55,715 bases of DNA from contig SXUP01000039.1 in NCBI GenBank assembly GCA_005790505.1, positions 1 to 55,715 of the forward strand, given 5' to 3'. Positions 3,117 to 55,715 of the stretch are shown one piece after another; position 1 is the stretch's first letter, and each line of letters opens with the position of its first letter. Made by a program: the position numbers and the translations under genes. Under the pieces are notes generated by a model. It was not told where the DNA came from. It was given only the letters and a program-made list of their open reading frames with translations, and did not search any database. This stretch comes from Actinomycetota bacterium (GTDB lineage: Bacteria; Actinomycetota; Acidimicrobiia; Acidimicrobiales; Ilumatobacteraceae).

Positions 3117-3250
3117 ATTGTCCCCCGATTGCCTGCTCTATACCTTGGGGCTGTGTGTCGTTTTTCTCCCCACTTAAACACTACGACATCGCGCCATCGA
3201 TTGCGAAGGGCGGTCCACTAGGAAACCAGAGCCCTATTTTGACCTAATGT

Positions 3251-3268
3251 TTAGACGTTGGGATCTAA
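3251..3268. promoter_or_regulatory. Inverted repeat TTAGA-N8-TCTAA in a divergent promoter region
   Basis: A perfect 5-bp inverted repeat lies in the 174-bp gap between the alcohol dehydrogenase gene (minus) and the ABM-domain gene (plus), 22 bases before the plus-strand start. Both genes also carry nearly the same leader, CAATCGGGGGA(A)CA, before their start codons. The site could bind a shared regulator. It is short enough to arise by chance. Confidence 0.25.
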
Positions 3269-3290
3269 CAGTTAAACAATCGGGGGAACA

Positions 3291-3638
3291 ATGAGTCTTA
3301 TCGCTATCGAAGCCGCAATCCGCATCAGTGATCCAGCCAAAAGAGACGCGGCAGTCGCGGCTGCAGGACCAATTCAAAAGGCAACACGCGATGATGAGCC
3401 AGGATGTTTGGTTTACTGCTTCGCCGCAGACCCATGCGAAGCAGACCTTATTCAGGTCTATGAATTATGGGAAGACGAAGCCACCCTCAATGCACATTTT
3501 GATCATCAGAACTATCACAACATGCGAGAAATGCTCGGTGGCTTTGGTCTTAAGTCTGCAGTGAGTCGCAAGCATCTGATCAGCAAATCTGCTCCGGTTT
3601 ATGGCTCAGACATGAAGGCCAGCGCCAAGTTTGACTAG
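3291..3638 (+). CDS. ABM-domain protein, putative quinol monooxygenase-like
   Basis: A 115-aa protein with the dimeric ferredoxin-like fold of the antibiotic biosynthesis monooxygenase (ABM) family. The segments TRDDEPGCLVYCFAADP, YELWEDEATLNAHF and HFDHQNYHNM are the family's core, with the conserved Glu-Leu-Trp strand and a His-containing helix. Members include quinol monooxygenases such as YgiN and enzymes or chaperones that act on aromatic intermediates without a cofactor. CGGGGGAAC precedes the ATG. Its stop codon overlaps that of the convergent ligase gene in a shared CTAG (3635-3638). Family is clear; activity is not. Confidence 0.8.
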   Translation: MSLIAIEAAIRISDPAKRDAAVAAAGPIQKATRDDEPGCLVYCFAADPCEADLIQVYELWEDEATLNAHFDHQNYHNMREMLGGFGLKSAVSRKHLISKSAPVYGSDMKASAKFD

Positions 3639-5287: not shown

Positions 5288-5290
5288 GTC

Positions 5291-27189: not shown

Positions 27190-28491
27190 TTAGTCGGTAG
27201 GCCACACATCGGCTGTCGAAGAAATCTGATCTCGAAACATCGGATGACTTATGCGTGCCAGTTCATGGGCACGTTGAGCGATTGATAAGCCGCCTATCTC
27301 TGCCGCCCCATACTCCGTGATTACAACATCAACTTGATGGCGGGGTGTTGTCACGATGCTTCCTTCCGGAAGTCGGCCCAAGATGCGCGACACCAATTGC
27401 CCACTCACCATTGTTGTTGAAGGCAGGCATATCAAACTACGGCCATTTGCCGACAAGCCCGGCCCTGCCACGAAGTCTTCATGACCACCAATTCCAGAAA
27501 ATTGTTTGCCGTTAATTGAATCGGCAATAACTTGACCAGAGAGATCAACAGCCATCGCCCCGTTGATAGAGACCATGTTGCGCTGGCGAGAAATCAACTC
27601 GGGCGAGTTCACGACACTCACCGGCATAAATCTCACATCATGATTGCCATCAAGCCATTCGTAGAGTTCCGAAGTTCCAGCAGCAAATGTTGTGAGAGAA
27701 AACCCGTCATACTCCGTCCCTTTTTTATTTGTCACTTTTCCAGACAGATGCAGTCGCATTAGACCCGTTGTAAACATCTCGGAATGAATTCCGTAATCAC
27801 CGCCACCACCTAGCGCAAGTTGAGTTGCAACCTGACTCGGAATACCTCCAATTCCAGTCTGTAAAGTGCAGCCATCTCGGATGAACTTAACCGCATGTTG
27901 AGCAATAATGATCTCCTCTTCAGACGCCACAACATCAGCAAGATCAAGTGGCTTCCGATCAGATTCGATTAAAAAGTCAATGTCGCTTATAGCGATTCGA
28001 TGTTCATACCGCCCCGGAATTCCGTAGGTGTGCGGAAAATGTGGACTGACCTCAACGATCAAGACTCGTTCCTGATCCCTGATGACTGAAACAATTTCGT
28101 TTGCCGTCGCACCTGCGTGCAATGACAAACTCACGTATCCGTCTTCTGGCGTTGCACCTGCGACTGCCAGCACACGTGGCTTGAGATGGGCGAGAACCGG
28201 CTCGAATCGTCTGAAATCGGCAGGGATGAAATCAATATCTGCCCCACTATCGCGCAGGAATCGCTCGGCTGGCCCAAAAAAACCGCTTTGAAAATGCACC
28301 GCTGGTTGCATGAATAGCGCATACAAATCAGGCAACAGAGCACCGGACACCCGTAGATCTACAAGGTCAGTTCTTTCACCCAATGCATGCATAAATGCAC
28401 CAGGAATCCCTGGACCCAGTGGCACTGCAAGCGTGTCAGTCGGCCTTATCGCACCAACTGCGGCCGCCATCGTCGAAAAGATGCTGTCCAT
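27190..28491 (-). CDS. Acetyl-CoA hydrolase/transferase family CoA-transferase
   Basis: A 433-aa class I-type CoA-transferase similar to 4-hydroxybutyrate and succinate CoA-transferases. Recognisable blocks are GIGGIPSQVATQLA, GIHSEMFTTGLM, FSGIGGHEDFVAG and the C-terminal VVITEYGAAEIGGLS. It would move CoA between acetyl-CoA and a carboxylate, or hydrolyse it. It is convergent with the MDR gene (5 bp between stops) and divergent from the ABC-F gene at 28574. The substrate acid is not readable. Confidence 0.85.
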   Translation of the reverse strand: MDSIFSTMAAAVGAIRPTDTLAVPLGPGIPGAFMHALGERTDLVDLRVSGALLPDLYALFMQPAVHFQSGFFGPAERFLRDSGADIDFIPADFRRFEPVLAHLKPRVLAVAGATPEDGYVSLSLHAGATANEIVSVIRDQERVLIVEVSPHFPHTYGIPGRYEHRIAISDIDFLIESDRKPLDLADVVASEEEIIIAQHAVKFIRDGCTLQTGIGGIPSQVATQLALGGGGDYGIHSEMFTTGLMRLHLSGKVTNKKGTEYDGFSLTTFAAGTSELYEWLDGNHDVRFMPVSVVNSPELISRQRNMVSINGAMAVDLSGQVIADSINGKQFSGIGGHEDFVAGPGLSANGRSLICLPSTTMVSGQLVSRILGRLPEGSIVTTPRHQVDVVITEYGAAEIGGLSIAQRAHELARISHPMFRDQISSTADVWPTD

Positions 28492-28573
28492 TTATTGCTC
28501 CCTAGTTTATTGCAGAGCCAAGAGATTTTACCCACGAGTGGGGTCTTATATTTTTCACGCGAGAATAGGGCGC

Positions 28574-30214
28574 GTGAGCAGCATCGTAATTTCAGACTTG
28601 GCATACTCCCCGCCCGGAGCAGACCAACTATTTTTTGATGTTGGCTTCGGGGTATCTCCGGGTGAGCACGCAGCACTTGTCGGCGCCAATGGTGTCGGTA
28701 AAAGCACTATTTTGCGTATCTTGACGGGTGAATTGGCTCCAGATGACGGAGAATACACCGTCAACGGAACGATGCTGGCCATGACTCAAGACGTTGGCAT
28801 GTCACGACCAACCGACACGGTGCGCCAAATGTTGCTTGAGGTTGCTCCCCCAACATTGAGAGTCGCTGGCAAAGCGCTAATTGTGGCAGAGCAGGCGTTG
28901 GCCAACGGTGCTGACGACGGAATGGGTTACGCGACTGCATTGTCGGACTGGGGCGACCTGGGTGGATACGAACTTGAAACACAATGGCAAGCCGCTGCTC
29001 AACGCAGTGTCAAAACACCAATCATTGATTTTTCTGGACGACTTGTCAGTGAACTCTCAGGAGGCGAACGCAAGCGACTCGTCCTGGATCTCTTGCTTAC
29101 TTCTGGCGTCGATGTCTTGCTGCTTGACGAGCCGGATAACTATCTTGACATCCCCACTCGGGCCTGGCTTGAAGATCAAATCCGCTCATGCCGATCGACA
29201 ATTTTGATGGTCAGCCACGATCGCACGATGCTAGAACGTGTCTCCACAAAAATCATCGCCATTGAAGGCTCCGGATGCTGGGTGCACGGTGGCTCCTATG
29301 TGTCATACCCGGAAGCACGTCAGAAACGTCAAGCGTTATTGGGCGACGACCTCAAGCGATGGAACGATGAAGAAAGACGATTATTTCATCACATGAAAAT
29401 CATGAAACAACGAGCGGCCCAGAACTTTAAAAATGCAACCAAGGCAAATGGGGCAGAAACCCGTTGGGAAAAATTCGTTGCTGCTGGACCGCCACCGCCA
29501 CCAGCACCCGACCAACAGATATATGTTCGCCTACGTGGGGCCGACTCTGCACGCCGTGTTGTTAAATTTGACAATCTCTCAATGGGAAATCTTTTTTTGC
29601 CGTTCTCAGACGAGGTGCACTATGGCGAACGCGTCGGCCTAATTGGTCCAAATGGCACAGGCAAAAGCCATTTACTTGGTGCGCTAAGCGGCGACAAACA
29701 GCCAGATCGTGGGACAATTATTTTTGGCCCTCGTACCTCTGTTGGTGTTTTTACGCAAATCAATGATCGCCCCGATTTCATTGGCCGCGAATGCATCGAC
29801 ATCGTTCGTGACCGTATTAGCGATGAACAAAAAGCTATGGGAGCCCTCGCCCGCTATGGACTACGAAACAATTCTCGGCAAGATTTTGCAACACTTTCTG
29901 GTGGACAAAAAGCCCGACTTGAGATCCTGTGTCTTGAACTTGAAGGACACAACGTTTTGTTGCTGGATGAACCAACTGACAACCTTGACATTGAGTCATC
30001 AGAAGCACTTGAAAAAGCGCTTGATGGTTTTGAAGGAACAGTCATTGCAGTCAGCCATGACCGAACATTCCTTGCCCAATTTGACCGATTCATCATGATT
30101 ACGGACGGTGGGGATGTTTACGCCTTGCCAGATTTTGAAATCGCACTTGCCGGGCTCAGTTCACCAGACACTTTGTCTACACTGCGTTTAGCCAAACCAC
30201 TAACAACGGCGTAG
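28574..30214 (+). CDS. ABC-F family ATPase, copy 1
   Basis: A 546-aa soluble protein with two ATP-binding cassettes and no membrane segments. Cassette 1: Walker A GANGVGKST, signature LSGGERKRL, Walker B LLLDEPDNYLD. Cassette 2: GPNGTGKSH, LSGGQKARL, LLLDEPTDNLD. A charged linker (about residues 250-310) separates them. ABC-F proteins act on ribosomes in translation or antibiotic protection. The frame is open back to 28310, but that region overlaps the divergent CoA-transferase. GTG 28574 starts VSSIVISDLAYSPPG, a normal first strand, and is preferred. Confidence 0.88.
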   Translation: MSSIVISDLAYSPPGADQLFFDVGFGVSPGEHAALVGANGVGKSTILRILTGELAPDDGEYTVNGTMLAMTQDVGMSRPTDTVRQMLLEVAPPTLRVAGKALIVAEQALANGADDGMGYATALSDWGDLGGYELETQWQAAAQRSVKTPIIDFSGRLVSELSGGERKRLVLDLLLTSGVDVLLLDEPDNYLDIPTRAWLEDQIRSCRSTILMVSHDRTMLERVSTKIIAIEGSGCWVHGGSYVSYPEARQKRQALLGDDLKRWNDEERRLFHHMKIMKQRAAQNFKNATKANGAETRWEKFVAAGPPPPPAPDQQIYVRLRGADSARRVVKFDNLSMGNLFLPFSDEVHYGERVGLIGPNGTGKSHLLGALSGDKQPDRGTIIFGPRTSVGVFTQINDRPDFIGRECIDIVRDRISDEQKAMGALARYGLRNNSRQDFATLSGGQKARLEILCLELEGHNVLLLDEPTDNLDIESSEALEKALDGFEGTVIAVSHDRTFLAQFDRFIMITDGGDVYALPDFEIALAGLSSPDTLSTLRLAKPLTTA

Positions 30215-30260
30215 CGCACTCATCTCTTTTGTCGCAAGCAACGCCGTAGCCTAAGAGGCT

Positions 30261-32066
30261 GTGATTCTTATTGATGCCCAAGGCATAAAAGCCTCCCGCC
30301 CGAATCGACCGCTCTTTGATGATTTGTCCATCACGGTCAATGATGGTGATCGCATTGGTGTTGTCGGGCTCAACGGTTGCGGCAAAAGTACGTTGCTTCG
30401 CATCATCAGTGGTGATCTTGAACCAGATGCCGGAGTTGTTCGCAAAGGGCGTGGCGCTCGCATTGGGGTTTTACCCCAACTTCCAGTTCTTCCCATCGGA
30501 ACTGTGCGTGAGGCAGTTGGTCACGACTGGCAAGGCGAAGCGATGCTTGATCGCCTCGGAATGTTTGGGCTGATTGATGCTTCTACGGCGGAACTTTCTG
30601 GCGGACAAAAAAAGCGTGTTGCGCTTGCTGCCTTGTTGGTATCGGAGTGGGAAGCGCTCATCTTGGACGAACCGACTAACCATCTCGACCTTGATGCAAT
30701 CTCATATCTCGAGGAATGGTTGGCAAATTACTCGGGTGGACTTTTGCTCGTCACGCATGACCGTCATGTACTCGATCGAGTCACCACCAAAGTTCTCGAA
30801 ATTGATCGCGGGCACTCATATATGCATGTTCCTGCAAACCGTCACGCAGGTTCTGGCTATGCGGCGTATTTGGCCGGACGCATTGAGCGTGAAGAACAAG
30901 CAGCAACTGCTGAGCAAATTCGCAAGAATCTTGCCAAGCACGAACTCGCATGGCTGCGTCGGGGTGCACCTGCTCGATCAACAAAACCAAAAGCGCGCGT
31001 CAATGCAGCCAAAGAAGTCGTCGCTCGTCGCGCAGATGCACCTGCTCGTGTTGGCGAACTTGGTCTATCACTTGGTAGTCAACGACTTGGATCAAAAGGA
31101 GTTCAACTTCACAGCGTCGGATTCAGTTGGCCTGCAACGTCTCAAAACCCGAACGGCACACTTGTCCTGCAACCACTCGAGCACGAACTCGAACCAGGAG
31201 ATCGCCTTGGCATCGTTGGACCAAATGGTGCCGGCAAGAGCACATTGCTGGATCTGATTGCTCAACGATTGCGTCCAACTATTGGCCATATTGAAATGGG
31301 ACGCACTGTCAAAGTTGGCTATTACGACCAACTAGGGCGTGACCTGAACCTCGGTCAACGCGTACGTGAGGCTGTTGCAGGCGACAAAGGCGAACCATCA
31401 GTCCAAGACAACAACTTGATGCGTCAATTTTGGTTCGACGGCGATGCACAATTCGCCCCCATTTCAACACTGTCTGGTGGGGAGCGCCGTCGCTTACAAC
31501 TTCTTCTTACACTTGCCGAACAGCCAAATGTCTTGTTGCTTGACGAACCCACCAATGATCTTGATCTTGACACGCTCCGCGCGCTCGAGGAATACCTTGA
31601 TACGTGGCCAGGCATTGTCGTTGTCGTGAGTCACGATCGCATCTTTCTTGATCGAACTGTTGATGAAGTATTGGCCCTTGACAACTCAGGGGGTGCTGCT
31701 CTCGTGCGCGGTGGTGTACAGGGATGGCTTAATCAACGCAATACACCAAAGCAATCAACAAAAGTGCGTAGCACGGTATCGGTATCAACCAGCGTTGCGT
31801 CAATACCTCCGCCCAAAGCGACAATCTCTGCAAAGAGCGCCAGCACGCTTCGGCGACTACTTGTCCAAGCAGGAAAATCATTGGCTGACGCAACGTTTCG
31901 ACTAGAAAGTCTCAATGCATCGGTTGCGACTGCGGGTGCTGACCACGCTTTGTTGGCGCGCCTCAGTGCAGAACTTGCTACCGCCCAAATTAGTATGGTC
32001 GCAGCCGAAGAGGCCTGGCTGGCCCTTGCTGCTCAGGCTGAATTGCAAGGCATCTCCGTCGAATAA
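30261..32066 (+). CDS. ABC-F family ATPase, copy 2 (Uup-like)
   Basis: A 601-aa two-cassette ABC-F protein. Cassette 1: GLNGCGKST, LSGGQKKRV, LILDEPTNHLD. Cassette 2: GPNGAGKST, LSGGERRRL, LLLDEPTNDLD. A C-terminal extension of about 75 residues (from about 520) is Ala/Leu/Glu-rich and predicted by eye to be a coiled coil, as in Uup. The start is GTG 30261 after AAGAGG. It follows copy 1 by 46 bp on the same strand. It is more likely a housekeeping translation factor than a resistance gene. Confidence 0.88.
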   Translation: MILIDAQGIKASRPNRPLFDDLSITVNDGDRIGVVGLNGCGKSTLLRIISGDLEPDAGVVRKGRGARIGVLPQLPVLPIGTVREAVGHDWQGEAMLDRLGMFGLIDASTAELSGGQKKRVALAALLVSEWEALILDEPTNHLDLDAISYLEEWLANYSGGLLLVTHDRHVLDRVTTKVLEIDRGHSYMHVPANRHAGSGYAAYLAGRIEREEQAATAEQIRKNLAKHELAWLRRGAPARSTKPKARVNAAKEVVARRADAPARVGELGLSLGSQRLGSKGVQLHSVGFSWPATSQNPNGTLVLQPLEHELEPGDRLGIVGPNGAGKSTLLDLIAQRLRPTIGHIEMGRTVKVGYYDQLGRDLNLGQRVREAVAGDKGEPSVQDNNLMRQFWFDGDAQFAPISTLSGGERRRLQLLLTLAEQPNVLLLDEPTNDLDLDTLRALEEYLDTWPGIVVVVSHDRIFLDRTVDEVLALDNSGGAALVRGGVQGWLNQRNTPKQSTKVRSTVSVSTSVASIPPPKATISAKSASTLRRLLVQAGKSLADATFRLESLNASVATAGADHALLARLSAELATAQISMVAAEEAWLALAAQAELQGISVE

Positions 32067-32097
32067 TGCCACATTTGGTGCGAGGCGGACTCTTGTC

Positions 32098-32126
32098 TTG
32101 ATGTGCTGATGCGCTATAAATAATCT
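32098..32126 (+). promoter_or_regulatory. Possible sigma70-type promoter before SDR gene
   Basis: TTGATG (32098-32103), a 17-bp spacer and TAATCT (32121-32126) lie 41 bases before the SDR start at 32167. The overlapping TATAAA at 32115 is an alternative -10. This is a motif match by eye only. Confidence 0.3.
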
Positions 32127-32166
32127 TTGTTCCGTCAACATCGACGGCTTCTAACGGGGGTGAAAA

Positions 32167-33084
32167 ATGGGTCAGTTCAGCAGCAAAACGGTTCTGATAA
32201 CGGGAGCATCGTACGGACTAGGTGAAGGATTCGCTGAAGGATTCGCCAAAGAAGGTGCCGACCTCATCCTCACAGCGCGCTCAACAGAACTTCTCAATAG
32301 TGTTGCCGATCGCTGTCGAGCAATGGGGTCGAAAGTAACCGTAATCCCAGGGGATGTATCAATTGAAGAAGATGTGCTTCGTGTTGTGCAAACCGGAATC
32401 AAAGAGCATGGCAAAATTGATGTACTCATTAACAACGCGGGCGTCAGCGACATGCGCGGAGTTTCTCCTGAAAACTTCGATATGACCACATGGAATTGGA
32501 TCATGTCAATCGACTTGAACGGTGCATTCATGTACATGCGTGAGTGTGGCAGACACATGCTTGAACGTAAAAGTGGTTCAATCGTCAATATCTGCTCAAT
32601 CATGGGCAGCGGAGCAAATGAGCTCAACATCATCGCCTACACAGCGGCCAAAGGTGCACTGCGAAATCTCACACTGCAATTAGGTTGCGAATGGGCAGAC
32701 CGTGGCGTGCGCGTTAATGCAGTGTCACCTGGGTTCATCATCACAGAAATGGTGCGACCAGCGCTTGAAGCATTGGGCATGGACAAATGGATTGCCAGCC
32801 GCACTCCAATGCGCCGAATCGGTGAACTAGAAGAGATTGTCGGACCCGTAATGTTTTTGGCATCTGACGCCGCGAGTTACATCACAGGCCACGACCTACT
32901 TGTCGATGGTGGCACGAACGCAGCGAACGGGTACTACCAAATCCCGCCAATCCATCATGAATGGAACTCTGATAATGCACCACGAGTTGGAGAGGGCTAT
33001 CCCGGAATTCAGCCCCGACCCGATTGGTATCAGGCTCTATCGGCGGGAATCCCCGGAATCCATTATCCAATGCCTGACGCCTGA
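32167..33084 (+). CDS. SDR-family oxidoreductase with C-terminal extension
   Basis: A 305-aa short-chain dehydrogenase. The motifs are TGASYGLGEG, NNAG in LINNAGVSD, catalytic Tyr-Lys in YTAAK, and ITGHDLLVDGGTN. After the usual end the protein continues about 50 residues, rich in Pro, Gly, Trp and Tyr (IPPIHHEWNS, GIQPRPDWYQ, GIHYPMPDA), which probably covers the active site. GGGGGTGA precedes the ATG. It converges on the phosphotransferase cluster. Confidence 0.88.
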   Translation: MGQFSSKTVLITGASYGLGEGFAEGFAKEGADLILTARSTELLNSVADRCRAMGSKVTVIPGDVSIEEDVLRVVQTGIKEHGKIDVLINNAGVSDMRGVSPENFDMTTWNWIMSIDLNGAFMYMRECGRHMLERKSGSIVNICSIMGSGANELNIIAYTAAKGALRNLTLQLGCEWADRGVRVNAVSPGFIITEMVRPALEALGMDKWIASRTPMRRIGELEEIVGPVMFLASDAASYITGHDLLVDGGTNAANGYYQIPPIHHEWNSDNAPRVGEGYPGIQPRPDWYQALSAGIPGIHYPMPDA

Positions 33085-33103
33085 TCGGCAATTTTCTACG
33101 GCA

Positions 33104-34180
33104 TTAGATTAAAAATTCAGCGACGCGATGATCGCGCATTGCCGACTGTGCTCGTTTTATGACTTCAGTCCACAAGGACATTGCCCGCTCACTTGAAACA
33201 TCAAGTGAGCCAACAGCGAATACCGGAATAATCCATCCATACAAAACTCCAACACGGTAATCCTGATAAAACTGCTCAAATGAATAATCCGCAACGCCAT
33301 TTTTTATCAGTTCATCATGATAGATGTGCAAAAGAGAATTTTCATTTTCCTGACGTATAGAAGTGTTGACGCTCTGGCTCATAAAATAAGCAACATCATA
33401 TGCACCCCCACCTTTGCTGCAGGTCTGAAAATCAATCATCCAGACGTCACCTTTTTCCCCAAAGAAAAGATTGTCAAGCCTAAAATCAAAATGCGCGACG
33501 GTGTTGGGCATTGCGGCAATGCGATCAAGCAACTGATGCACGTTGGCCCCGTATTGCTCCATCACTGGAACCATGTCGGCGTCAATGGCGTGCTCAAATA
33601 CTTGCATGAATCCCGGCAAAGAGGCTTTGTATACCTCGCTACCAATCTTCATGCCTTCTGAGTTGGCCATTGGCAACCAGTCAAACGAGTTCAGTTCTTC
33701 TGTTTGCCAAAAATGGGCGTGCATTCCAGCGACAGTGCGCATCACAGCAGCCGCATCGTTTGCCGTAACGCCCGCTGCTTGGTCTCCGACTCGCAGATGT
33801 CCAAGATCTTGCAACACCAATACATAATCATCATTGGCATAATCAGCAGCCACATAATGAGCACTTGGCACGGTTGGCAATTGTGGGGCGATTTGGGAGT
33901 AGAAGCGGGCCTCGCGCTCAAAGACTCGCGCAGGCGCCAGCATGCCCCTGATCATTTGGTCTTGTGTCGGTATTTTGCAGATCACACTGCTTGGTCCAGT
34001 ACCGCCAGCATAATTAATGCCGAGTCTTCCAACTTCCCCCATAAATCCAACCCCAGCACCCATATTGTGCGGGGTCAAAGAAGTCACGCTTGTCGAAGCA
34101 TCGATCACTCCACCCGCACGCAACGACTCCGACATCCATTCCATCGTGATCGTGGAAACAGTTGTAGGTAAGCGGTTCAT
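33104..34180 (-). CDS. Phosphotransferase of the APH/ecdysteroid-kinase-like fold
   Basis: A 358-aa kinase-like protein. The catalytic loop is HFDFRLDN (Brenner's motif HxDxxxxN) and the Mg-binding Asp is in WMIDFQT. The N-terminal lobe includes GAGVGFMGEVGRL as the nucleotide loop. The overall pattern fits the aminoglycoside phosphotransferase / ecdysteroid kinase-like superfamily, which phosphorylates small hydroxylated compounds. It is the last gene of a three-gene minus-strand unit with a 168-aa protein and a second APH-type kinase. Resistance is unlikely given the setting; a catabolic kinase role is inferred. Confidence 0.85.
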   Translation of the reverse strand: MNRLPTTVSTITMEWMSESLRAGGVIDASTSVTSLTPHNMGAGVGFMGEVGRLGINYAGGTGPSSVICKIPTQDQMIRGMLAPARVFEREARFYSQIAPQLPTVPSAHYVAADYANDDYVLVLQDLGHLRVGDQAAGVTANDAAAVMRTVAGMHAHFWQTEELNSFDWLPMANSEGMKIGSEVYKASLPGFMQVFEHAIDADMVPVMEQYGANVHQLLDRIAAMPNTVAHFDFRLDNLFFGEKGDVWMIDFQTCSKGGGAYDVAYFMSQSVNTSIRQENENSLLHIYHDELIKNGVADYSFEQFYQDYRVGVLYGWIIPVFAVGSLDVSSERAMSLWTEVIKRAQSAMRDHRVAEFLI

Positions 34181-34194
34181 CTTGTCGGTCCTTA

Positions 34195-34701
34195 TTATCC
34201 TCGACCAATCATGCCAGCACCGGCAACAACCGTTGCTATATCGCGTGCATAACGCGGTGCCAAATGCGTACGAATAATATCTAAAGCCACATCACCACGT
34301 GTGTCTCCGGCCCGCTGCAACACATCAAGATCAATGATTGTTTGTTCTAGTGCTTTGCCAAGCTGGCGATGCGCCGCAAGAACTTTCTCGCGATCCATTG
34401 GCGCGGGCACATCTGCCAAAGTTCCAAGGGTTTTCGCGCGCTCGCGAACAGCATCTGCGGATGGACCTGACACACCTTCTAGTGCGCCCGCAGTATCGCG
34501 CAGAACTTTGGTCATTGCATTGTGTTCGTCGACGATATATGAATCATAAACAGGCACCATCTGACGCAATTCCTGAATCAGTGACTGCATCATGGCGGCA
34601 GTTGATTGTGCTTTTGGATTCGACAAGTTCGGCATCAATTCTTCGCTGATGGCGTATATCAAGCCCATCAAAATATCGTCAATGCTTGGACTGGTATTCA
34701 T
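34195..34701 (-). CDS. Unrecognised 168-aa helical protein between two kinases
   Basis: I do not recognise a family. The protein is soluble, mostly helical by composition, and has no Cys. Features are an N-terminal IDDILMGLIYAISEELMPNL helix, a QELRQMVPVYDSYIVDEHNA segment, and a C-terminal GDVALDIIRTHLAPRYARDI region. It overlaps the upstream kinase gene by 4 nt and precedes the second by 14 bp. It could be an accessory subunit of the kinases, but nothing in the sequence proves it. Confidence 0.75.
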   Translation of the reverse strand: MNTSPSIDDILMGLIYAISEELMPNLSNPKAQSTAAMMQSLIQELRQMVPVYDSYIVDEHNAMTKVLRDTAGALEGVSGPSADAVRERAKTLGTLADVPAPMDREKVLAAHRQLGKALEQTIIDLDVLQRAGDTRGDVALDIIRTHLAPRYARDIATVVAGAGMIGRG

Positions 34702-35756
34702 GATGCCGCTCCTGGATAATTCATTTGTTGTGAGAATGCCTTCAACGCCGGACTACTGGACTGCACCAGATACACGGGAAGCAGTTGGTGGTGTTCACCA
34801 GCGAGTCTGCGAAAGATTGCGGAGTTCACTGGTACTGCGATATTTGCGGTACCAAACATATTGAAATAATTGATCTCTTCAGGCGTGACCTTGAATCCTG
34901 TGAGTTCGTTGTAGTACGCCAAGAATCCACCTTTATCGCGTGGGTGATCCATAATGCGTGTGTTGCTCAAGAGATCCATCGTGGTCATCCAGCCCAAGTC
35001 CTCCCGCGGATCACCAACACGGCTATTTTCCCAATCAATCAATGCCGTCACCTTGCCATTTTCATACAAAAAATTAGCAGGATTAAAATCACCGTGCACA
35101 AGCGCGAGTGGCAATGCACGTGGTTTCGTGCGACGCAAAGTTTGAAATAAATCAATGAGGATCATCAACGACGGATCAAATGCCAGTGATGGATACGATG
35201 AAATGTAATACTGACATGTTGAGTCAATGTAGTCATCCCATGACGTCGTGATGATCCCGACTCCTCGCGGATCACTAAGGGCACCAGTTGGGTCGATAGT
35301 GGCGATATCCGTTGTATGCAATTCAACAAGCACCTCGCACAAGTGTCGCACCACATCGTCAACTTGATCTTCGTCGGGCCCGCCATTAAATAGGTCAGAC
35401 GTGTTGCCATTGCCATGCATGCGCTGAATAATCATTGCGGCTTCACCAAAAGGCGCAGGATCAAGTTCGTATCCATAACTCTGGCTTACTGGAACGCTGG
35501 TATTGAGACGAATCGATTCAATCAAGTCGTGCTCTACTGCCCGACTGGTTTGCAGAATTGCCGCCTCTTTGGGTGGATCTTTTCGCAAAATAAGTGCCAA
35601 CTGCTCTTCTGCACCCGCGCGCCGCAGTCGAGCGGTACAACTAAATGTTTCACGAGAAAATCCGCCAGGAATCTGCTGGAAGCCTTCAATGCAGATGTCT
35701 GAGGCCTCAGGAAACCGCTTCGCCAAGAACTCAACTACAGATTGCTCCATGAGCAC
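34698..35756 (-). CDS. APH-family phosphotransferase
   Basis: A 352-aa kinase-like protein of the aminoglycoside phosphotransferase fold. The catalytic loop is VHGDFNPANF and the Mg-binding Asp is in ALIDWENSRVGDPREDL. The N-lobe shows IPGGFSRETFSC and a Lys in LILRKDPP. This is closest in pattern to the ACAD10/11-type and uncharacterised actinobacterial phosphotransferases that occur in acyl-CoA catabolic regions and may phosphorylate hydroxyacyl-CoA. It heads the three-gene unit and is divergent from the nitroreductase gene by 58 bp. Confidence 0.88.
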   Translation of the reverse strand: MLMEQSVVEFLAKRFPEASDICIEGFQQIPGGFSRETFSCTARLRRAGAEEQLALILRKDPPKEAAILQTSRAVEHDLIESIRLNTSVPVSQSYGYELDPAPFGEAAMIIQRMHGNGNTSDLFNGGPDEDQVDDVVRHLCEVLVELHTTDIATIDPTGALSDPRGVGIITTSWDDYIDSTCQYYISSYPSLAFDPSLMILIDLFQTLRRTKPRALPLALVHGDFNPANFLYENGKVTALIDWENSRVGDPREDLGWMTTMDLLSNTRIMDHPRDKGGFLAYYNELTGFKVTPEEINYFNMFGTANIAVPVNSAIFRRLAGEHHQLLPVYLVQSSSPALKAFSQQMNYPGAAS

Positions 35757-35814
35757 TCCCCCCGTTTGTACACTTGGTTAACAAACTCAAAGATTAGTGC
35801 AATAGGATTATTCC

Positions 35815-36474
35815 ATGCCAATTGACCATATTTCAACTGACAAACTTCTCACCACCACCCGCTCTGTACGAAAACGACTCGACCTCAGCCGTGCCGTCGA
35901 GCCTGAGATCATTCAAGATTGTATTGAAATCGCCACGCAAGCCCCGACCGGAACCAATGCGCAGAACTGGGCATTCGTGGTGATCACTGACGCCGCCAAA
36001 CGCAAGGCTATTGCTGACGCCTATCGCCAAGGTGGCGAAGTCATGTCGGGCTCGGGATATCCGCCACCTCTAGAACCTGGTGACCCACGCGAACACGTGA
36101 TGCCCAAAGTCATGGAGTCAGCGCAGTATCTGGGACAAGTGCTCGAGCAGGTACCCGTGCACGTCATTGCCTGCGTCAGAGGTCGAGTCGAGTCCGTCCC
36201 GATGGTGATTGCCCAGGCCAGCACCTACGGATCTATCCTGCCAGCGGCTTGGAGTTTTATGCTGGCGCTGCGTTCTCGCGGTCTTGGAACGGCCTGGACC
36301 ACGATTCATCTGTTCCAAGAAAAAGAAATCTCCCAGCTACTTGGCATCCCAGAGGACTGGACCCAGACGGTTCTCTTTCCCGTGGCTTACTACACAGGAG
36401 ATGATTTCAGACCAGCCCACCGACTTCCAGCAGGCGAAATGACCCATTGGAATTCCTGGGGCAGCCACCGCTAA
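35815..36474 (+). CDS. Nitroreductase family FMN-dependent oxidoreductase
   Basis: A 219-aa nitroreductase-fold protein. The FMN-binding N-terminus has TRSVRKRLDL, then EIATQAPTGTNAQNWAFVVI, and the C-terminal half has SILPAAWSFMLALRSRGLGTAWT. Members are homodimers that reduce nitro groups, quinones or enones with NAD(P)H. It stands alone between the phosphotransferase unit and the HU gene. Confidence 0.9.
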   Translation: MPIDHISTDKLLTTTRSVRKRLDLSRAVEPEIIQDCIEIATQAPTGTNAQNWAFVVITDAAKRKAIADAYRQGGEVMSGSGYPPPLEPGDPREHVMPKVMESAQYLGQVLEQVPVHVIACVRGRVESVPMVIAQASTYGSILPAAWSFMLALRSRGLGTAWTTIHLFQEKEISQLLGIPEDWTQTVLFPVAYYTGDDFRPAHRLPAGEMTHWNSWGSHR

Positions 36475-36544
36475 CTCGGCGAAATAATTGAAAAAACGCT
36501 GAGAATCCCACACTTTTGCTGTCGGATGGAATAACTTTAGGACT

Positions 36545-36955
36545 ATGAAAAAACGAGAGTTAATCCATGCAGTAGCCATCCACACCGACGTCGATAATAA
36601 GACGGCGGCCAAACTTGTCGAAGGAACAATTGACGTCATTCTTGCCAATGTCGCCAAAGGTGAAATCGTCAACATTTCAGGATTTGCAAAGTTTGCAAAA
36701 ATCAAGCGTCCTGCCCGTATGGCCCGTAACCCGGCCACCGGCGAGCCAGTAAAAGTAAAAGCAAAAACGGTTGCCAAGATCACCGCACTGAAAGGTTTCA
36801 AGGACATCGCACTCGGTGTTTCACCAGCACCAAAAGTCGTGACTGTTCGCAAACCTGCACCTGCAAAAAAAGCTGCTCCTAAGAAAGTCGCTAAAAAAGC
36901 AACCAAAAAAGCCGTGAAGAAGACGGCCAAGAAAGCCACCAAGAAAAGGCGCTAA
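36545..36955 (+). CDS. hupB: HU-family nucleoid protein with Lys/Ala-rich tail
   Basis: A 136-aa DNA-binding protein. Residues 1-90 form a canonical HU domain (MKKRELIHAVA, then ISGFAKFAKIKRPARMARNPATGE, the beta-arm with the Arg-Asn-Pro tip). Residues 95-136 are a tail of KKA, KKV and TKK repeats. This two-domain form is typical of actinobacterial HupB; the tail binds DNA nonspecifically and condenses it. The family is secure. A strong terminator follows at 36994. Confidence 0.95.
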   Translation: MKKRELIHAVAIHTDVDNKTAAKLVEGTIDVILANVAKGEIVNISGFAKFAKIKRPARMARNPATGEPVKVKAKTVAKITALKGFKDIALGVSPAPKVVTVRKPAPAKKAAPKKVAKKATKKAVKKTAKKATKKRR

Positions 36956-36993
36956 TCCAACCCGTCAGGGTTCGCCTTGACAAAAATCTGAAT

Positions 36994-37038
36994 GACCCGT
37001 TCGTTGTGTGAAAGCGCAATGAGCGGGTCGTTTTGTTT
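36994..37038 (+). terminator. Strong intrinsic terminator after hupB
   Basis: A 16-bp stem (36994-37009 with 37014-37029, including four G-U pairs on the RNA) is closed by a GAAA tetraloop and followed by GTTTTGTTT. It ends hupB transcription. On the other strand a T-run also lies a few bases beyond the stem, so it may serve the convergent regulator gene ending at 37040 as well. Confidence 0.85.
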
Positions 37039-37039
37039 A

Positions 37040-37795
37040 CTAGATCTGTGTTGCCACCAAAACATCCGTTGCCTTGCAGAGCGCCAGCACCTCATCACCT
37101 GGCGCCAACCTCAATTGATGTGTTGCTTCTTGCGTGATTGTTGCAGTCATCTCTTGCCCTGAAGAAACGGCGAGTTTTACCGAAGACAAAACCCCACCAT
37201 GCTTCACTTGAATAACTGTCGCACGCAGTTGATTTCGCGCACTTAATTGCAATCGATCACTTGAGTCTGCATCTGAAACGACACTGTGGCGTTGCCCTGA
37301 CAGTTCATCGAGAAACCTCGCGACCGCACGTGCTTGTTCACGACGCCAGACTGCTACCTCTGAATCATCTCTGTCTCGCAGCAAACCAGAAATAACATCA
37401 TGCAATGTTGCACGCTGTTGACTCAGAAATCGTTGCGATGACAGAGCCGATTCATCACGAAGTACCAACTTCACAAGCAGTTCTGTTCGAATCTCGCGGA
37501 TATGTTGCACTGGCTGATTCAACCAATCTTTGCGGATCTCATCACCCGTCTTTGTAAGTTTCAAAATTAATTTCAATTGACCGCGTGAGCCAGTTGTTTT
37601 GGAACTAGCCAAGTACTTCTTTTTTACCAGCACATCTAGGGCTCGATACACAACAGGTCGGCTGACTGTGTAAATAACCCCAAGTTTTGTTGCAGGTCTA
37701 AAGTGCTGAGCAATCTCGTACCCATGAGTTGCTCCATTCCCGACCAAGGTCAAACACGCCCCCTCAAGAACGGATATTTCTTGCTTTTCACTCAT
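37040..37795 (-). CDS. PadR-type regulator fused to a molybdate-binding Mop domain
   Basis: A 251-aa fusion. Residues about 5-95 form a PadR-like winged helix (GATHGYEIAQHF, YTVSRPVVYRALDVLV, GSRGQLKLILKLT). A helical PadR C-terminal segment spans about 95-165. Residues about 183-251 form a Mop/TOBE domain starting with SARNQLRATV and ending with GDEVLALCKATDVLVA, the ligand-binding unit otherwise found in ModE and ModC. It is divergent from modABC, so it is very probably the molybdate-responsive regulator of the locus. It replaces ModE with a different DNA-binding domain. Confidence 0.88.
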   Translation of the reverse strand: MSEKQEISVLEGACLTLVGNGATHGYEIAQHFRPATKLGVIYTVSRPVVYRALDVLVKKKYLASSKTTGSRGQLKLILKLTKTGDEIRKDWLNQPVQHIREIRTELLVKLVLRDESALSSQRFLSQQRATLHDVISGLLRDRDDSEVAVWRREQARAVARFLDELSGQRHSVVSDADSSDRLQLSARNQLRATVIQVKHGGVLSSVKLAVSSGQEMTATITQEATHQLRLAPGDEVLALCKATDVLVATQI

Positions 37796-37806
37796 TGCAC
37801 CACTTT

Positions 37807-37833
37807 ATAGTCCTTTTGAGACTATCGGATAGT
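37807..37833. promoter_or_regulatory. Overlapping inverted repeats: operator for the PadR-Mop regulator
   Basis: ATAGTC (37807-37812) and GACTAT (37820-37825) form one inverted repeat with a 7-bp spacer. ACTATC-G-GATAGT (37821-37833) forms a second, sharing the middle arm. Both lie in the 64-bp gap between the regulator gene (start 37795) and modA (start 37860). The three ATAGT half-sites suit a dimeric regulator binding in two registers. Sequence is seen; binding is inferred. Confidence 0.6.
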
Positions 37834-37859
37834 AATATTGCTACCACTAGCCTGATTTT

Positions 37860-38654
37860 GTGTCAAGAACCCGAAGCTTCATTACAAGAGTTGTCTTTTG
37901 GGGCGCTATCGCAGTGGTGATTTCTGGATGTTCATCAAGTTCGTCTGGCGACACTGATAGGTCGTCCAAAAAAATTCGCCTAAATGTTTCTGCCTCGGCA
38001 TCACTCGCCCGAGCTTTTGACGAAATCTACACAGTTTTCGAATTGCAATTTCCAGCGATTTCGGTTTCTAGCACTTTTGCAGGCAGCGCCACATTGGTGA
38101 CCCAGATACAAAATGGCGCAACGGCTGATGTCGTGGCTTTGGCAGATACGACCAACATGGAAAAACTACGTGAAGTGGGTCAAATAAATCCTGCGACTGT
38201 GAAGATCTTTGCAACCAACACGATGACCATCGCAGTGCCTCGCAAAAACCCCAACAAAGTTGCAGGTCTAAGAGACCTCGCCGATGAGTCAATCAATGTC
38301 GTACTCTGCGCCCCCAACCAGCCGTGTGGCGCGTACGCCAGACAAATCCTTGAAAATGCAGGTCTGAGTGTTTCTCCAAAAAGTCTTGAGACAAGCGTGG
38401 GTGGCGTCATCAGTAAAATCTCAAATGGCCAAGCAGATGCTGGGATTGTTTACGTTACAGACACTTTGGCAGCAGCCAAAACAGTAGAGGCAGTCAGCAT
38501 TCCAGCAGCATTGAACATCACAGCCCTTTACCCCATCGCCCGTCGTGCAGAGTTGTCAACAACAGTTCAAAAAGCTGCTGACACATTTATCGCATTCGTA
38601 ATTGGCAAAAGTGGCAATGAAATTTTAAACAAATACGGCTTCAGACTCCCATGA
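37860..38654 (+). CDS. modA: Molybdate ABC transporter substrate-binding lipoprotein
   Basis: A 264-aa type 2 periplasmic-binding protein. The signal peptide ends at a lipobox with Cys24 (VVISGC), so it is lipid-anchored. The mature protein begins with LNVSASASLARAFDEI, matching the ModA anion-binding first loop, then FAGSATLVTQIQNGATADVVALAD and GQADAGIVYVTD. The start is GTG 37860. The stop overlaps modB (ATGA). Gene order modA-modB-modC confirms molybdate (or tungstate) uptake. Confidence 0.93.
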   Translation: MSRTRSFITRVVFWGAIAVVISGCSSSSSGDTDRSSKKIRLNVSASASLARAFDEIYTVFELQFPAISVSSTFAGSATLVTQIQNGATADVVALADTTNMEKLREVGQINPATVKIFATNTMTIAVPRKNPNKVAGLRDLADESINVVLCAPNQPCGAYARQILENAGLSVSPKSLETSVGGVISKISNGQADAGIVYVTDTLAAAKTVEAVSIPAALNITALYPIARRAELSTTVQKAADTFIAFVIGKSGNEILNKYGFRLP

Positions 38655-39463
38655 TGCGACCATCACGCACACTTAATGGCCCGCGCGGATTCTTTGCCAT
38701 CGCAATTTTGTGCGCGACTCTGATTGCCTTGCCACTAGTCGCACTTGCTATCCGCGTTCCGTGGAGCACGTTTTTTTCGTCACTCAGCAGTGAGACAGCG
38801 ACAACTGCACTTTCCTTGTCGCTTCGCACATCGCTGATCAGTACATCTCTTGCCATCATCACAGGACTCCCGCTTGCATGGCTCCTTGCCCATCGTAATT
38901 TTCGTGGTATCGCACTTGTGCGCGCACTCTGCGTGTTGCCCATGGTTCTGCCACCAGTTGTGGGGGGTGTTGCATTGTTATATGCCTTTGGTGCAAAAGG
39001 CGTTATCGGTTCTGCACTTAATGACTGGTTTGACATCCGTCTGGCTTTTACTCAGACGGCAGCAGTTCTGGCGCAATATTTTGTCGCCGTTCCATTTTTC
39101 ATCGTCGTCATGGAGTCTGCATTTCAACAATTCGATCAACGGCTCGCGCAAGCTGCGCGAACATTAGGAGCAGGTCCGTGGCGCACATTTGTCACTGTCA
39201 CTCTGCCGGTTGTTCGACCCGCCCTCATTGCTGGGGTTGTTCTGACGTGGGCTCGAGCACTCGGCGAGTTTGGTGCCACAATCACATTTGCCGGTAATAC
39301 AGCAGGCCGCACTCAGACACTTCCGCTTGCCATCTACATGGCGTTTGAAAATGGCGACGATCAAGCACTCGTCCTGTCGTTCATCATGATGACTGTGTCG
39401 TTTGTTGTGCTCGTACTCTTGCGTCAACATTGGATCTCAGCGCTCAAAAGAGGTGGACAATGA
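38651..39463 (+). CDS. modB: Molybdate ABC transporter permease
   Basis: A 270-aa membrane protein with about six hydrophobic helices. The conserved permease motif is EFGATITFAGN with the nearby RALGEFG loop that contacts the ATPase, and AQAARTLGAGPWRTF precedes it. Two adjacent ATGs (38651, 38654) could start it; the first overlaps the modA stop. The stop overlaps modC (ATGA). Confidence 0.93.
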   Translation: MMRPSRTLNGPRGFFAIAILCATLIALPLVALAIRVPWSTFFSSLSSETATTALSLSLRTSLISTSLAIITGLPLAWLLAHRNFRGIALVRALCVLPMVLPPVVGGVALLYAFGAKGVIGSALNDWFDIRLAFTQTAAVLAQYFVAVPFFIVVMESAFQQFDQRLAQAARTLGAGPWRTFVTVTLPVVRPALIAGVVLTWARALGEFGATITFAGNTAGRTQTLPLAIYMAFENGDDQALVLSFIMMTVSFVVLVLLRQHWISALKRGGQ

Positions 39464-40140
39464 CGCTTCATCTCGACTTTGATATCGCGCGAGACAACTT
39501 CACTCTCACCGTCAACCTTGATGTCGCAAATGGCGAGGTGCTGGCGCTCACTGGCCCTAATGGCTCAGGAAAAACATCAACCCTTCACGCTATTGCTGGG
39601 CTCTTGCCTTGCTCGCGTGGCGTAATTTCTTTCAACAATGCCATCTTTGACGCAAACGCCGATATGACTTCAGTTTTCCTCCAACCAGAGCGACGCAAAG
39701 TGGGAGTTGTCTTTCAAGATGGCGCGCTATTCCCCCATTTAGATGCGCTTCATAATGTTGCCTACGGACTACGGGCTCAAGCCGTGACCAAATCAGTCGC
39801 CATTGATCGCGCCCACAAAATGCTTGCCACAATGAAAATAGATCACATGGCGAACTCTCGCCCACACCAACTCAGTGGTGGGCAAAAACAACGCGTAGCG
39901 CTTGCTAGAACCTTGATTACTCAACCAGATATTTTGCTACTTGATGAACCTACTACTGCTCTCGACCAAGAATCTCGCCAAGACACAGTGCGCCTCCTTG
40001 ACGAGGTCTTTACAGCTTTTAGTGGTCCTGTTTTGCTGGTGTCCCATCAATATGATGACATCTCGTTGCTCACACGCTCAATTGCACAAATCACAGTAGA
40101 ACGCACGGCAAAACATACAATGTCAACTTTGCAACGCTGA
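39460..40140 (+). CDS. modC: Molybdate ABC transporter ATPase lacking the Mop domain
   Basis: A 226-aa ATPase with Walker A GPNGSGKTS, Q-loop VFQDGALFPHL, signature LSGGQKQRVALAR, Walker B LLLDEPTTALD and switch His in VSHQYDD. Typical ModC is about 350 aa with a C-terminal Mop/TOBE domain; this one ends right after the ATPase core. The open frame begins at 39430, but ATG 39460 overlaps the modB stop (ATGA) and follows GAGGTGG. The missing Mop domain is instead found in the adjacent regulator. Confidence 0.93.
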   Translation: MTLHLDFDIARDNFTLTVNLDVANGEVLALTGPNGSGKTSTLHAIAGLLPCSRGVISFNNAIFDANADMTSVFLQPERRKVGVVFQDGALFPHLDALHNVAYGLRAQAVTKSVAIDRAHKMLATMKIDHMANSRPHQLSGGQKQRVALARTLITQPDILLLDEPTTALDQESRQDTVRLLDEVFTAFSGPVLLVSHQYDDISLLTRSIAQITVERTAKHTMSTLQR

Positions 40141-40157
40141 ATGCAAAACCCTTTTCA

Positions 40158-40820
40158 CTAATACGGAAGTGTGTAGGTATTTTCTAGCTCGTCTTGAACA
40201 ACGGTTGCCACCGTGGCTGTCGTGTCAACTATTAGTTCGGCATCAAGGGTGCGAGTACGAAACGACCAACCCTCTGGCATCGATAATCGTGAGCCAAGAT
40301 CACTCAGATTGGCTTGGGTCAGGGTCGGATCAACCCCAACACAATATGCCTGCATCACATAAGCACGACCGTCAGGGTTTAGGAGCTCATGCACCACTGA
40401 GCCCGCGTCAAAAAAGAATACTGCACCGCGATTGACATGCCGCTCGATGTATGACTGCTGCAATGCTTCAGTACCCAGATCCACTGTGGCAATACGCCGC
40501 ATCGTCAGACCGTTGAAATCACGAAACACCGGATCGACTACTGCAACTTTGGTTCCTAGGCCATCCAGCATCCAGTGGCGAGGGCCATTGAGTTTTACAA
40601 CTACAGCACCCATCTCAGCTGCAATCGTCGGGGCATCAAGGGTCTCCCATAGTTCTTGCGGACAATCATTCAGCATCTGAGTGCCATACACCTCTGCTTG
40701 CAGCCCGATATCTCGCATGTAGACGGCCAGAACTTCTCCGTACCGCACTCCACGCATATCTGAAATTAATCTTTGAGGCTTTTCGTTCAACATGGATGAC
40801 AGTCTATTAGACCAGATCAT
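40158..40820 (-). CDS. Unrecognised 220-aa protein
   Basis: I do not recognise a family. It looks like a soluble alpha/beta protein without signal or membrane segments. Visible features include MRGVRYGEVLAVYMRDIGLQ near the N-terminus, LNGPRHWMLDGLGTKVAVVDP and MRRIATVDLGTEALQQSYIE in the middle, and an FFFDAGSVVHEL segment. An ATG nine codons downstream (40793) is an alternative start; GTGGAAG before 40820 supports the longer one. It converges on modC with 17 bp between stops, so it is not part of the mod operon. Confidence 0.75.
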   Translation of the reverse strand: MIWSNRLSSMLNEKPQRLISDMRGVRYGEVLAVYMRDIGLQAEVYGTQMLNDCPQELWETLDAPTIAAEMGAVVVKLNGPRHWMLDGLGTKVAVVDPVFRDFNGLTMRRIATVDLGTEALQQSYIERHVNRGAVFFFDAGSVVHELLNPDGRAYVMQAYCVGVDPTLTQANLSDLGSRLSMPEGWSFRTRTLDAELIVDTTATVATVVQDELENTYTLPY

Positions 40821-54406: not shown

Positions 54407-55492
54407 TTGCTTTATATGCCAGAACTGCGCGTCGGAGTAATCGGCACGGGAATGATGGGTTGCGAGCACCTCCGCAATCTCATGGGAATTTCTGATGCCT
54501 CAATAACTGCAATCAGCGACCCACACGCAGAACAGCAAGGCTGGGCGCGTCACACGCTTGGCAGTCAAGCGAGCATGGTTGCCGAGTTCACTGATCACCG
54601 CGATCTTCTTAATAGTGGACTTGTTGACGCCGTTCTAGTTGCAACACCAAATTTCACACACAAGGCATTACTGGATGACATCTTTGAAACTGACCTTCAT
54701 GTGCTGGTTGAAAAACCGATGTGCACCACCGTCGAGGATTGCCTTTCAATTGTGCGGGCACAATCTAAACGGACCGCACTCACATGGGTGGGGCTCGAGT
54801 ATCGATACATGGCGCCAATCGCTGGTTTGTTGAACGAGCTTCGAAGTGGAATTGTCGGCAATCTAAAAATGATGTCCATTCGAGAACATCGGTTTCCATT
54901 TCTGGTAAAAGTGGATAACTGGAACCGATTTTCACAAAACACAGGTGGCACACTGGTCGAAAAGTGTTGTCATTTCTTTGATCTTATGAACCTTGCCGTT
55001 AGATCCCGTCCGGTTCGTGTATTCGCCAGCGGAAGTCAAGATTTAAATCATCTCGACGAAATATATGACGGCAGGCCAAGTGACATTTTAGACAACGCCT
55101 TCGTGATCGTTGATTACGCCAATGGCGTGCGAACGATGCTTGATCTATCAATGTTTGCCGAAGGTGGCTTGCACGAACAAGAAATCACGGTAGTTGGTGA
55201 CTTGGGGAAACTGGAAGCGTTTATTCCCGGCAATGGTAAAATTTTCATCGGCGACAGAATGTCAAGATCTGTGCGTGAAGTGGCAGTCCCAGTTGATCCA
55301 GACATCTCACATCTTGGTTTTCACCTCGGGGCAAGTTTTATTGAATGCAAACATTTTGTGGATGCCGTTCTGAATGACAAACAACCAGAGGTCACTGTTC
55401 TTGATGGTTTATGGTCTGTCGTCGTTGGTGCAGCCGCGCATAAATCAATTGACGAACAACGACCCGTGTTTATATCTGAGTACGGGATCTAG
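54407..55492 (+). CDS. Gfo/Idh/MocA-family oxidoreductase
   Basis: A 361-aa NAD(P)-dependent oxidoreductase. The Rossmann motif is GVIGTGMMGCEH, the family's EKP motif is VEKPMCT, and the C-terminal domain has MLDLSMFAEGG. The family acts on sugars, inositols and similar polyols. GAGAGG lies seven bases before TTG 54407; ATG 54416 is three codons further and less well placed. It is divergent from oleA. Its stop codon lies just before the tRNA fragment at the right edge. Confidence 0.88.
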   Translation: MLYMPELRVGVIGTGMMGCEHLRNLMGISDASITAISDPHAEQQGWARHTLGSQASMVAEFTDHRDLLNSGLVDAVLVATPNFTHKALLDDIFETDLHVLVEKPMCTTVEDCLSIVRAQSKRTALTWVGLEYRYMAPIAGLLNELRSGIVGNLKMMSIREHRFPFLVKVDNWNRFSQNTGGTLVEKCCHFFDLMNLAVRSRPVRVFASGSQDLNHLDEIYDGRPSDILDNAFVIVDYANGVRTMLDLSMFAEGGLHEQEITVVGDLGKLEAFIPGNGKIFIGDRMSRSVREVAVPVDPDISHLGFHLGASFIECKHFVDAVLNDKQPEVTVLDGLWSVVVGAAAHKSIDEQRPVFISEYGI

Positions 55493-55499
55493 TTTGAAA

Positions 55500-55546
55500 T
55501 GGCGCCCCCGGCAGGAATCGAACCTGCGACCTGCGGTTTAGGAAAC
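55500..55546 (-). pseudogene. 3' half of tRNA-Arg(CCU), probable integration site
   Basis: On the minus strand this reads anticodon loop TTCCTAA (anticodon CCU), anticodon 3' arm ACCGC, variable loop, complete T-arm (17 nt, 55511-55527), acceptor 3' strand CGGGGGC, discriminator and CCA (55500-55502). The bases that should pair with the anticodon arm (55545-55549) do not, and no D-arm follows. Identity to a tRNA thus stops in the anticodon loop. That is the usual break point where tyrosine recombinases integrate, and leaves this half as the far junction of the element. Confidence 0.75.
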
Positions 55547-55715
55547 TCGTACCTCTGTCCTCTATAGTTCGTGCTGGGTATGGGCTCTAGCCCCATCTCA
55601 GCACACACAGAGCACACGTTTAGGGAATCGTTCCCCGCTGTTCCCAGCCGTATGCAGCCATTCCCAATGTAGTCACAGTACTTCGTATGAAATCAACACC
55701 CCCAATTGTTACTGC
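55547..55715. mobile_element. Possible end of an integrated element (continues beyond window)
   Basis: DNA to the right of the tRNA fragment does not continue the tRNA. It has a compound hairpin (55571-55604: arms GTGCTG/CAGCAC around GGGCT/AGCCC), an inverted repeat GGGAA-TCG-TTCCC (55623-55635), and TTCCC at 55631, 55641 and 55661. Such spaced short repeats resemble recombinase arm-type sites. No integrase gene is visible within the window. Confidence 0.4.

What the first reader, a model, noticed from the sequence alone, without database searches (positions are those of the whole stretch)
55489..55715. tRNA-Arg(CCU) cut in the anticodon loop marks an integrated element to the right
The 3' half is intact to CCA, but the 5' half is replaced exactly at the anticodon loop. 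On the minus strand an open frame of about 65 codons runs from the new DNA through the tRNA half to a TAG at 55489-55491. For a minus-strand tRNA this orientation puts chromosomal DNA on the left (this window) and the element on the right. A group I intron in the anticodon loop, known in tRNA-Arg(CCU) of some bacteria, is an alternative.
Basis: partly seen in the sequence, partly recalled or inferred. Interest (0 to 1): 0.55.

Follow-up and report, generated by a model that had tools for sequence, protein, structure and literature searches.

The report
Edge of a tRNA-inserted mobile element
The last stretch of this contig is the left-behind 3' part of an arginine tRNA gene that was most likely cut by a mobile DNA element inserting there, a very common way for such elements to settle in bacterial chromosomes, so the find is ordinary although it marks a busy insertion site in this bacterial genus.

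Summary
Window 55500-55546 (minus strand) is the 3' part of a tRNA-Arg(CCU), positions 30-76, CCA included; no whole tRNA is found. The window is a whole contig (C29) of a 2.0-Mb, 66-contig assembly, so only 169 bp of the inserted DNA is visible and the other end cannot be read. The element interpretation is well supported, but indirectly. Relative G002 carries the complete arrangement at the same gene: intact tRNA-Arg(CCU), tyrosine integrase, excisionase-like protein, Rep protein, restriction-type helicase, then the displaced 3' part 8.4 kb away, cut at about the same place. Relative G012 has a displaced part followed by DNA that in G015 and G024 follows the intact tRNA. Some genes left of the fragment have homologues on the 3' side of tRNA-Arg(CCU) in G003 and G002, though order differs and the gene nearest the tRNA in G003 maps to another contig here. 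No group I intron is detected. The 67-codon antisense frame is within chance. This is a new member of a well known kind (tRNA-gene islands with anticodon-region crossover). In passing: a 2.7-kb insertion at tRNA-Arg(UCU) in G004, without a detected integrase, shares its end with the G002 element.

The parts
55500..55546 (-). Displaced 3' part of tRNA-Arg(CCU), positions 30-76, anticodon 55540-55542, CCA at 55500-55502 (attachment core on the chromosomal side)
55547..55715. Terminal 169 bp of the presumed integrated element. No match of note found: own genome only a 22-nt match at E 0.09; in 40 relatives only matches that are anchored in the tRNA part or in the Gfo/Idh gene; both phage records and the 20 listed of 49 plasmid records match in the tRNA part; three exact patterns find nothing in viral contigs
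55571..55604 (.). Imperfect inverted repeat (16-nt arms, 75% complementary) in the element end; role unknown, possibly part of the attachment region
   Evidence: fold of 55546-55715: plus strand z -2.48 (0 of 200 shuffles as low), minus strand z -1.66 (13 of 200)
54407..55492 (+). Gfo/Idh/MocA-type oxidoreductase gene ending 7 bp before the tRNA fragment; chromosomal side
28310..40820 (.). Chromosomal stretch with matches to DNA that lies 3' of tRNA-Arg(CCU) in G003 (four matches) and 3' of the displaced part in G002 (one match), on the same strand relative to the tRNA but not in the same order

Best explanation
A tyrosine-integrase element inserted into tRNA-Arg(CCU) by crossover in the anticodon stem-loop region. 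The element's own copy of the 3' part completed the tRNA at the far (right) end, and the original 3' part was pushed to this end, where it now marks the left border between chromosome (left) and element (right). Shown: the fragment, its break point, and a complete example at the same gene in a genus mate. Partly shown: that the left side is the chromosomal 3' neighbourhood. Inferred: that the element is still there to the right, that it carries or uses an integrase, and that the rebuilt tRNA lies beyond it.
For: Fragment orientation and break point. G002:C75 holds intact tRNA-Arg(CCU) at 20770-20843 and a displaced part at 12318-12366 (identity from position 28), same strand, 8.4 kb apart, with a 401-aa integrase (PF00589, Arm-DNA-bind_4) beside the intact gene and an excisionase-like HTH protein, a G2P-type Rep protein, a restriction-type helicase and a PBP_like_2 protein between. 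There the displaced part ends in CCA and the rebuilt gene in CTA, so the two copies have different origins (inference). G012:C48 has a displaced part 65 bp from its contig end, followed by the DNA that follows intact tRNA-Arg(CCU) in G015 and G024 (compared by eye). In G036, another family, an ORF similar to the G002 integrase (E 2e-21) starts within and runs on from tRNA-Arg(CCU). In 11 intact loci of 10 genus genomes the DNA just 3' of the gene falls into 9 unlike groups, while the last 28-29 bp or more 5' of it are shared by 8 of 11. Window 28.6-30.2, 30.3-31.7, 34.8-35.7 and 40.2-40.6 kb match the 3' neighbourhood in G003, and 36.5-36.8 kb that in G002. The T-stem pairing and CCA of the fragment are intact by eye, against an old decayed scar.
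Against: No integrase of an element, no tRNA-Arg(CCU) and no 5' half pattern (3 mismatches) in the assembly; but tRNA-Met, -Ile and -Tyr are missing from the same 34 matches, so absence weighs little. The new DNA resembles no fetched locus, including the ends of the G002, G004, G012 and C28 insertions. No relative with an intact tRNA-Arg(CCU) beside the Gfo/Idh gene appears; in the three relatives whose downstream side I read (L046, L050, L051) that gene is followed by another gene, and none of nine relatives' loci (L046-L054) holds a tRNA. The gene nearest the tRNA in G003 matches contig C6, not this contig. Gene order in the shared neighbourhood differs from G003, and three of five tRNA-Arg(CCU) neighbourhoods compared (L082, L083, L114) share only the tRNA with the window.
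Confidence: 0.85

Rival explanations
1. A scar: an element inserted here once and has since been lost or rearranged, leaving a tRNA 3' fragment beside unrelated chromosomal DNA.
For: No element integrase in the assembly; the Gfo/Idh gene and the oleA-like gene have other neighbours in the relatives that I read, so this place has been rearranged.
Against: The fragment keeps its T-stem pairing and CCA, which an idle scar would be expected to lose; a contig end is where an unassembled element is expected (inference).
Confidence: 0.09
2. A self-splicing group I intron in the anticodon loop, with the 5' exon just beyond the contig end.
For: Such introns are known in tRNA-Arg(CCU) of some bacteria (recalled; the literature searches listed one paper each and I read neither). 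The contig ends before a 5' half could be seen.
Against: No Intron_gpI among the five matches listed at E up to 10 in the last 416 bases; none at E 0.001 in G000 or in the 18 of 24 genus mates searched, with two sub-threshold matches in two of 12 genomes of other families, and 3 of 14 control genomes ringing. Identity starts in the stem rather than in the loop. At least 10 of 24 genus genomes have an uninterrupted tRNA-Arg(CCU).
Confidence: 0.02
3. A chimeric contig end: the assembler joined the tRNA part of the chromosome to unrelated DNA.
For: It is a contig end, tRNA sequence is repeated in the genome, and the last 169 bp match nothing else convincingly.
Against: The junction falls within two bases of the one used by a fully assembled insertion in G002, which a random join would hardly choose.
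Confidence: 0.04

Closest known systems
Genomic islands in tRNA genes with anticodon-centred attachment site (Islander database, PMC4383910; found passages read)
   Same: Displaced 3' tRNA fragment marks one end; crossover in the anticodon region. Its table counts 3919 islands, 3760 with a 3' fragment, 2083 with an anticodon-centred site.
   Different: The rebuilt tRNA and the integrase are not visible here because the contig ends.
G002 element at tRNA-Arg(CCU) in the same genus (contig CAIYTS010000075.1, MAG of an uncultured Acidimicrobiaceae bacterium)
   Same: Same gene, same orientation, break point within two bases.
   Different: Its 8.4-kb body is complete; its end sequence is unlike the window's 169 bp.
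Tycheposons (found passages of PMC10872708, and of PMC11389934)
   Same: tRNA-bounded elements with tyrosine recombinase and cargo in aquatic bacteria.
   Different: Neither cargo nor recombinase can be seen for the window's element; homology was not tested.
Group I introns of bacterial tRNA-Arg(CCU) (recalled)
   Same: Interruption near the anticodon of the same tRNA.
   Different: No intron model match; no 5' exon within the 169 bp visible.

Membership tests
tRNA-gene genomic island | Displaced 3' tRNA fragment | tested here: met
tRNA-gene genomic island | Intact target tRNA at the other end of the element | not testable with these tools
   Contig ends; none found in the assembly, whose tRNA set is incomplete
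tRNA-gene genomic island | Tyrosine integrase in the element | not testable with these tools
   Element body not in the assembly; the two PF00589 hits have housekeeping neighbours by my reading
tRNA-gene genomic island | Empty site in a relative | tested here: inconclusive
   Seen for G012 against G015/G024, not for the window's own flank; neighbourhood partly shared with G003 and G002
Group I intron in tRNA-Arg(CCU) | Match to the intron core model | tested here: not met
   an intron cut off by the contig end could be missed
Group I intron in tRNA-Arg(CCU) | 5' exon within a few hundred bases | not testable with these tools
   Contig ends 169 bp past the break

The most novel reading that the evidence does not exclude
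tRNA-Arg genes in this uncultured genus host a family of small integrative elements in two forms, one with integrase and Rep protein (G002, at the CCU gene) and one that carries a cargo gene only and borrows the integrase of the first (G004, at the UCU gene), and the window marks another member of that system.
Probability: 0.1. Interest if true: 0.45.

Novelty: new member of a known kind. Interest (0 to 1): 0.18.

Why it matters
It would explain a contig break and why no tRNA-Arg(CCU) is seen in the assembly, and it points to a place where members of this genus take up DNA. Beyond that it is a textbook arrangement.

Tried and rejected
Three short exact patterns from the element end found nothing in viral contigs. 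The G002 integrase gave no relative among viral contigs and only G002 itself among genome contigs, by a pattern search that reaches close relatives only. The antisense frame was tested and dropped. Four TTCCC/GGGAA motifs lie in the last 170 bp, reached by 10 of 20,000 shuffles, but the motif was picked after looking, so I make no claim. The stretch 5' of tRNA-Arg(CCU) recurs at G000 C31 and C49; I could not connect it to the window. Limits of the counts: not all rows were classified; one search classified 38 chosen loci, and the flank count left out two further CCU-like genes found only (G007:C19, G021:C17) and L076 (same place as L058). Of the 11 flanks counted, L056, L062, L066 and L083 do share DNA further out, at 22, about 680 and about 990 bp from the gene, which fits insertions of different size but was not pursued; L059 had only 16 bp of 5' flank. 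Papers: passages found by term in PMC4383910, PMC10872708 and PMC11389934; other listed papers only as search listings; Williams 2002 is not held.

Full report
What is there. On the minus strand, 55546-55500 is the 3' part of a tRNA-Arg(CCU), positions 30-76: the end of the 5' anticodon stem, the loop with anticodon CCU (55542-55540), the 3' stem, the variable loop, a paired T-arm and the acceptor strand ending in CCA. Intact tRNA-Arg(CCU) genes of relatives match it at 89-96% over 45-50 nt; tRNA-Arg(UCU) genes match from 55541 on at up to 97.6% over 42 nt. No whole tRNA is found in the window by ARAGORN or Rfam. A weak likeness to the tRNA continues to 55563, but 272 of 20,000 shuffles do as well.

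Where it is. The window is the whole of contig C29 (55,715 bp) of a 2.01-Mb genome in 66 contigs, 97.4% complete. The sequence stops 169 bp after the break. That end has only a 22-nt match at E 0.09 elsewhere in the genome; in 40 relatives only matches anchored in the tRNA part or the Gfo/Idh gene turn up; the two phage records and the 20 listed of 49 plasmid records match in the tRNA part; three exact patterns find nothing in viral contigs.

A relative shows the whole picture. In G002 (contig of an uncultured Acidimicrobiaceae MAG; same genus) an intact tRNA-Arg(CCU) at C75:20843-20770 is followed by a 401-aa tyrosine integrase, an 82-aa excisionase-like HTH protein, a 335-aa G2P-type replication protein, a 1210-aa restriction-type helicase, a 534-aa PBP_like_2 protein, and then by a displaced tRNA 3' part at 12366-12318. 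The break lies at position 28, two bases from the window's. The displaced part ends in CCA, the rebuilt gene in CTA. In G012 a displaced part lies 65 bp from a contig end and is followed by the DNA that follows the intact gene in G015 and G024 (compared by eye): a filled and empty pair for the same gene. In G036, of another family, an ORF similar to the G002 integrase (E 2e-21) runs on from tRNA-Arg(CCU).

The left side. Blast of the window to G003:C10 gives four matches besides the tRNA (window 28573-30198, 30262-31682, 34828-35690, 40162-40589), all on the same strand, and to G002:C75 one (36525-36837); in both relatives this DNA lies on the 3' side of the tRNA or its displaced part. The order differs from G003, the gene nearest the tRNA in G003 matches contig C6 instead, and three further tRNA-Arg(CCU) neighbourhoods (L082, L083, L114) share nothing but the tRNA. 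Nearer to the fragment, the Gfo/Idh gene is followed by another gene in the three relatives read (L046, L050, L051) and by no tRNA in nine loci; the oleA-like gene has a methyltransferase-like gene beside it in four relatives (these gene names are my reading of translations). So the left side is chromosome, but a rearranged piece of it.

A hotspot. In 11 intact loci of 10 genus genomes the sequence immediately 3' of the gene forms 9 unlike groups, while the last 28-29 bp or more 5' of it are shared by 8 of 11. Four of the loci (L056, L062, L066, L083) share DNA further out at different distances (22, about 680, about 990 bp). This fits repeated insertion on the 3' side.

Alternatives. An intron is not supported: no group I intron among the matches listed for the contig end at E up to 10, none in G000 or the 18 of 24 genus mates searched; two sub-threshold matches lie in other families, and 3 of 14 controls ring. 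The open frame is within chance (286 of 2000 shuffles). A scar or a chimeric contig end cannot be excluded but explain less. In the own assembly no tRNA-Arg(CCU) is among the 34 tRNA matches, though Met, Ile and Tyr are missing from them too; the two integrase-family proteins lie beside genes that I read as rpsB/dprA and pyrG and are probably XerC and XerD. The element body was probably not assembled or not binned (inference).

Verdict. A left border of an element integrated in tRNA-Arg(CCU), ordinary in kind; Islander lists 2083 anticodon-centred sites in its table of 3919 islands (PMC4383910, passages).

Noticed in passing
L078 (G004:C1) 3130-5988: Intact tRNA-Arg(UCU) and a displaced 3' part 2.7 kb apart enclose an 819-aa protein gene with bacterial Ig-like domains; no ORF there resembles the G002 integrase. 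The DNA ending 9 bp before the displaced part is alike to the end of the integrase-bearing G002 element (138 bp, 69%, E 5e-18 in a two-sequence comparison; 111 bp, 71%, E 1e-9 against all fetched loci).
   Followed up: partly
L004 (G000:C28) 1501-1536: A second contig of the genome ends about 200 bp after a tRNA 3' fragment; its T-arm and acceptor match tRNA-Met(CAT) genes of relatives while the anticodon side looks like Arg(UCU).
   Followed up: partly
L083 (G018:C52) about 455-1677; also G000 C31:18749-18791 and C49:14547-14586: A sequence that sits just 5' of tRNA-Arg(CCU) is repeated: in G018 a copy that runs into the first 8 nt of the tRNA lies about 1 kb before the real gene (content between not tested); about 40 bp of it recur at two places in the own genome.
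   Followed up: partly
G007:C38 and C19, G018:C52 and C86, G021:C80 and C17: tRNA-Arg(CCU)-like genes occur twice in these three genomes, four of the six within 1 kb of a contig start, which may reflect strain mixtures at the hotspot.
   Followed up: no
L145 (G027:C60:127414-127607), L146 (G036:C21:141267-141461): Sub-threshold group I intron matches in two genomes of other families.
   Followed up: no
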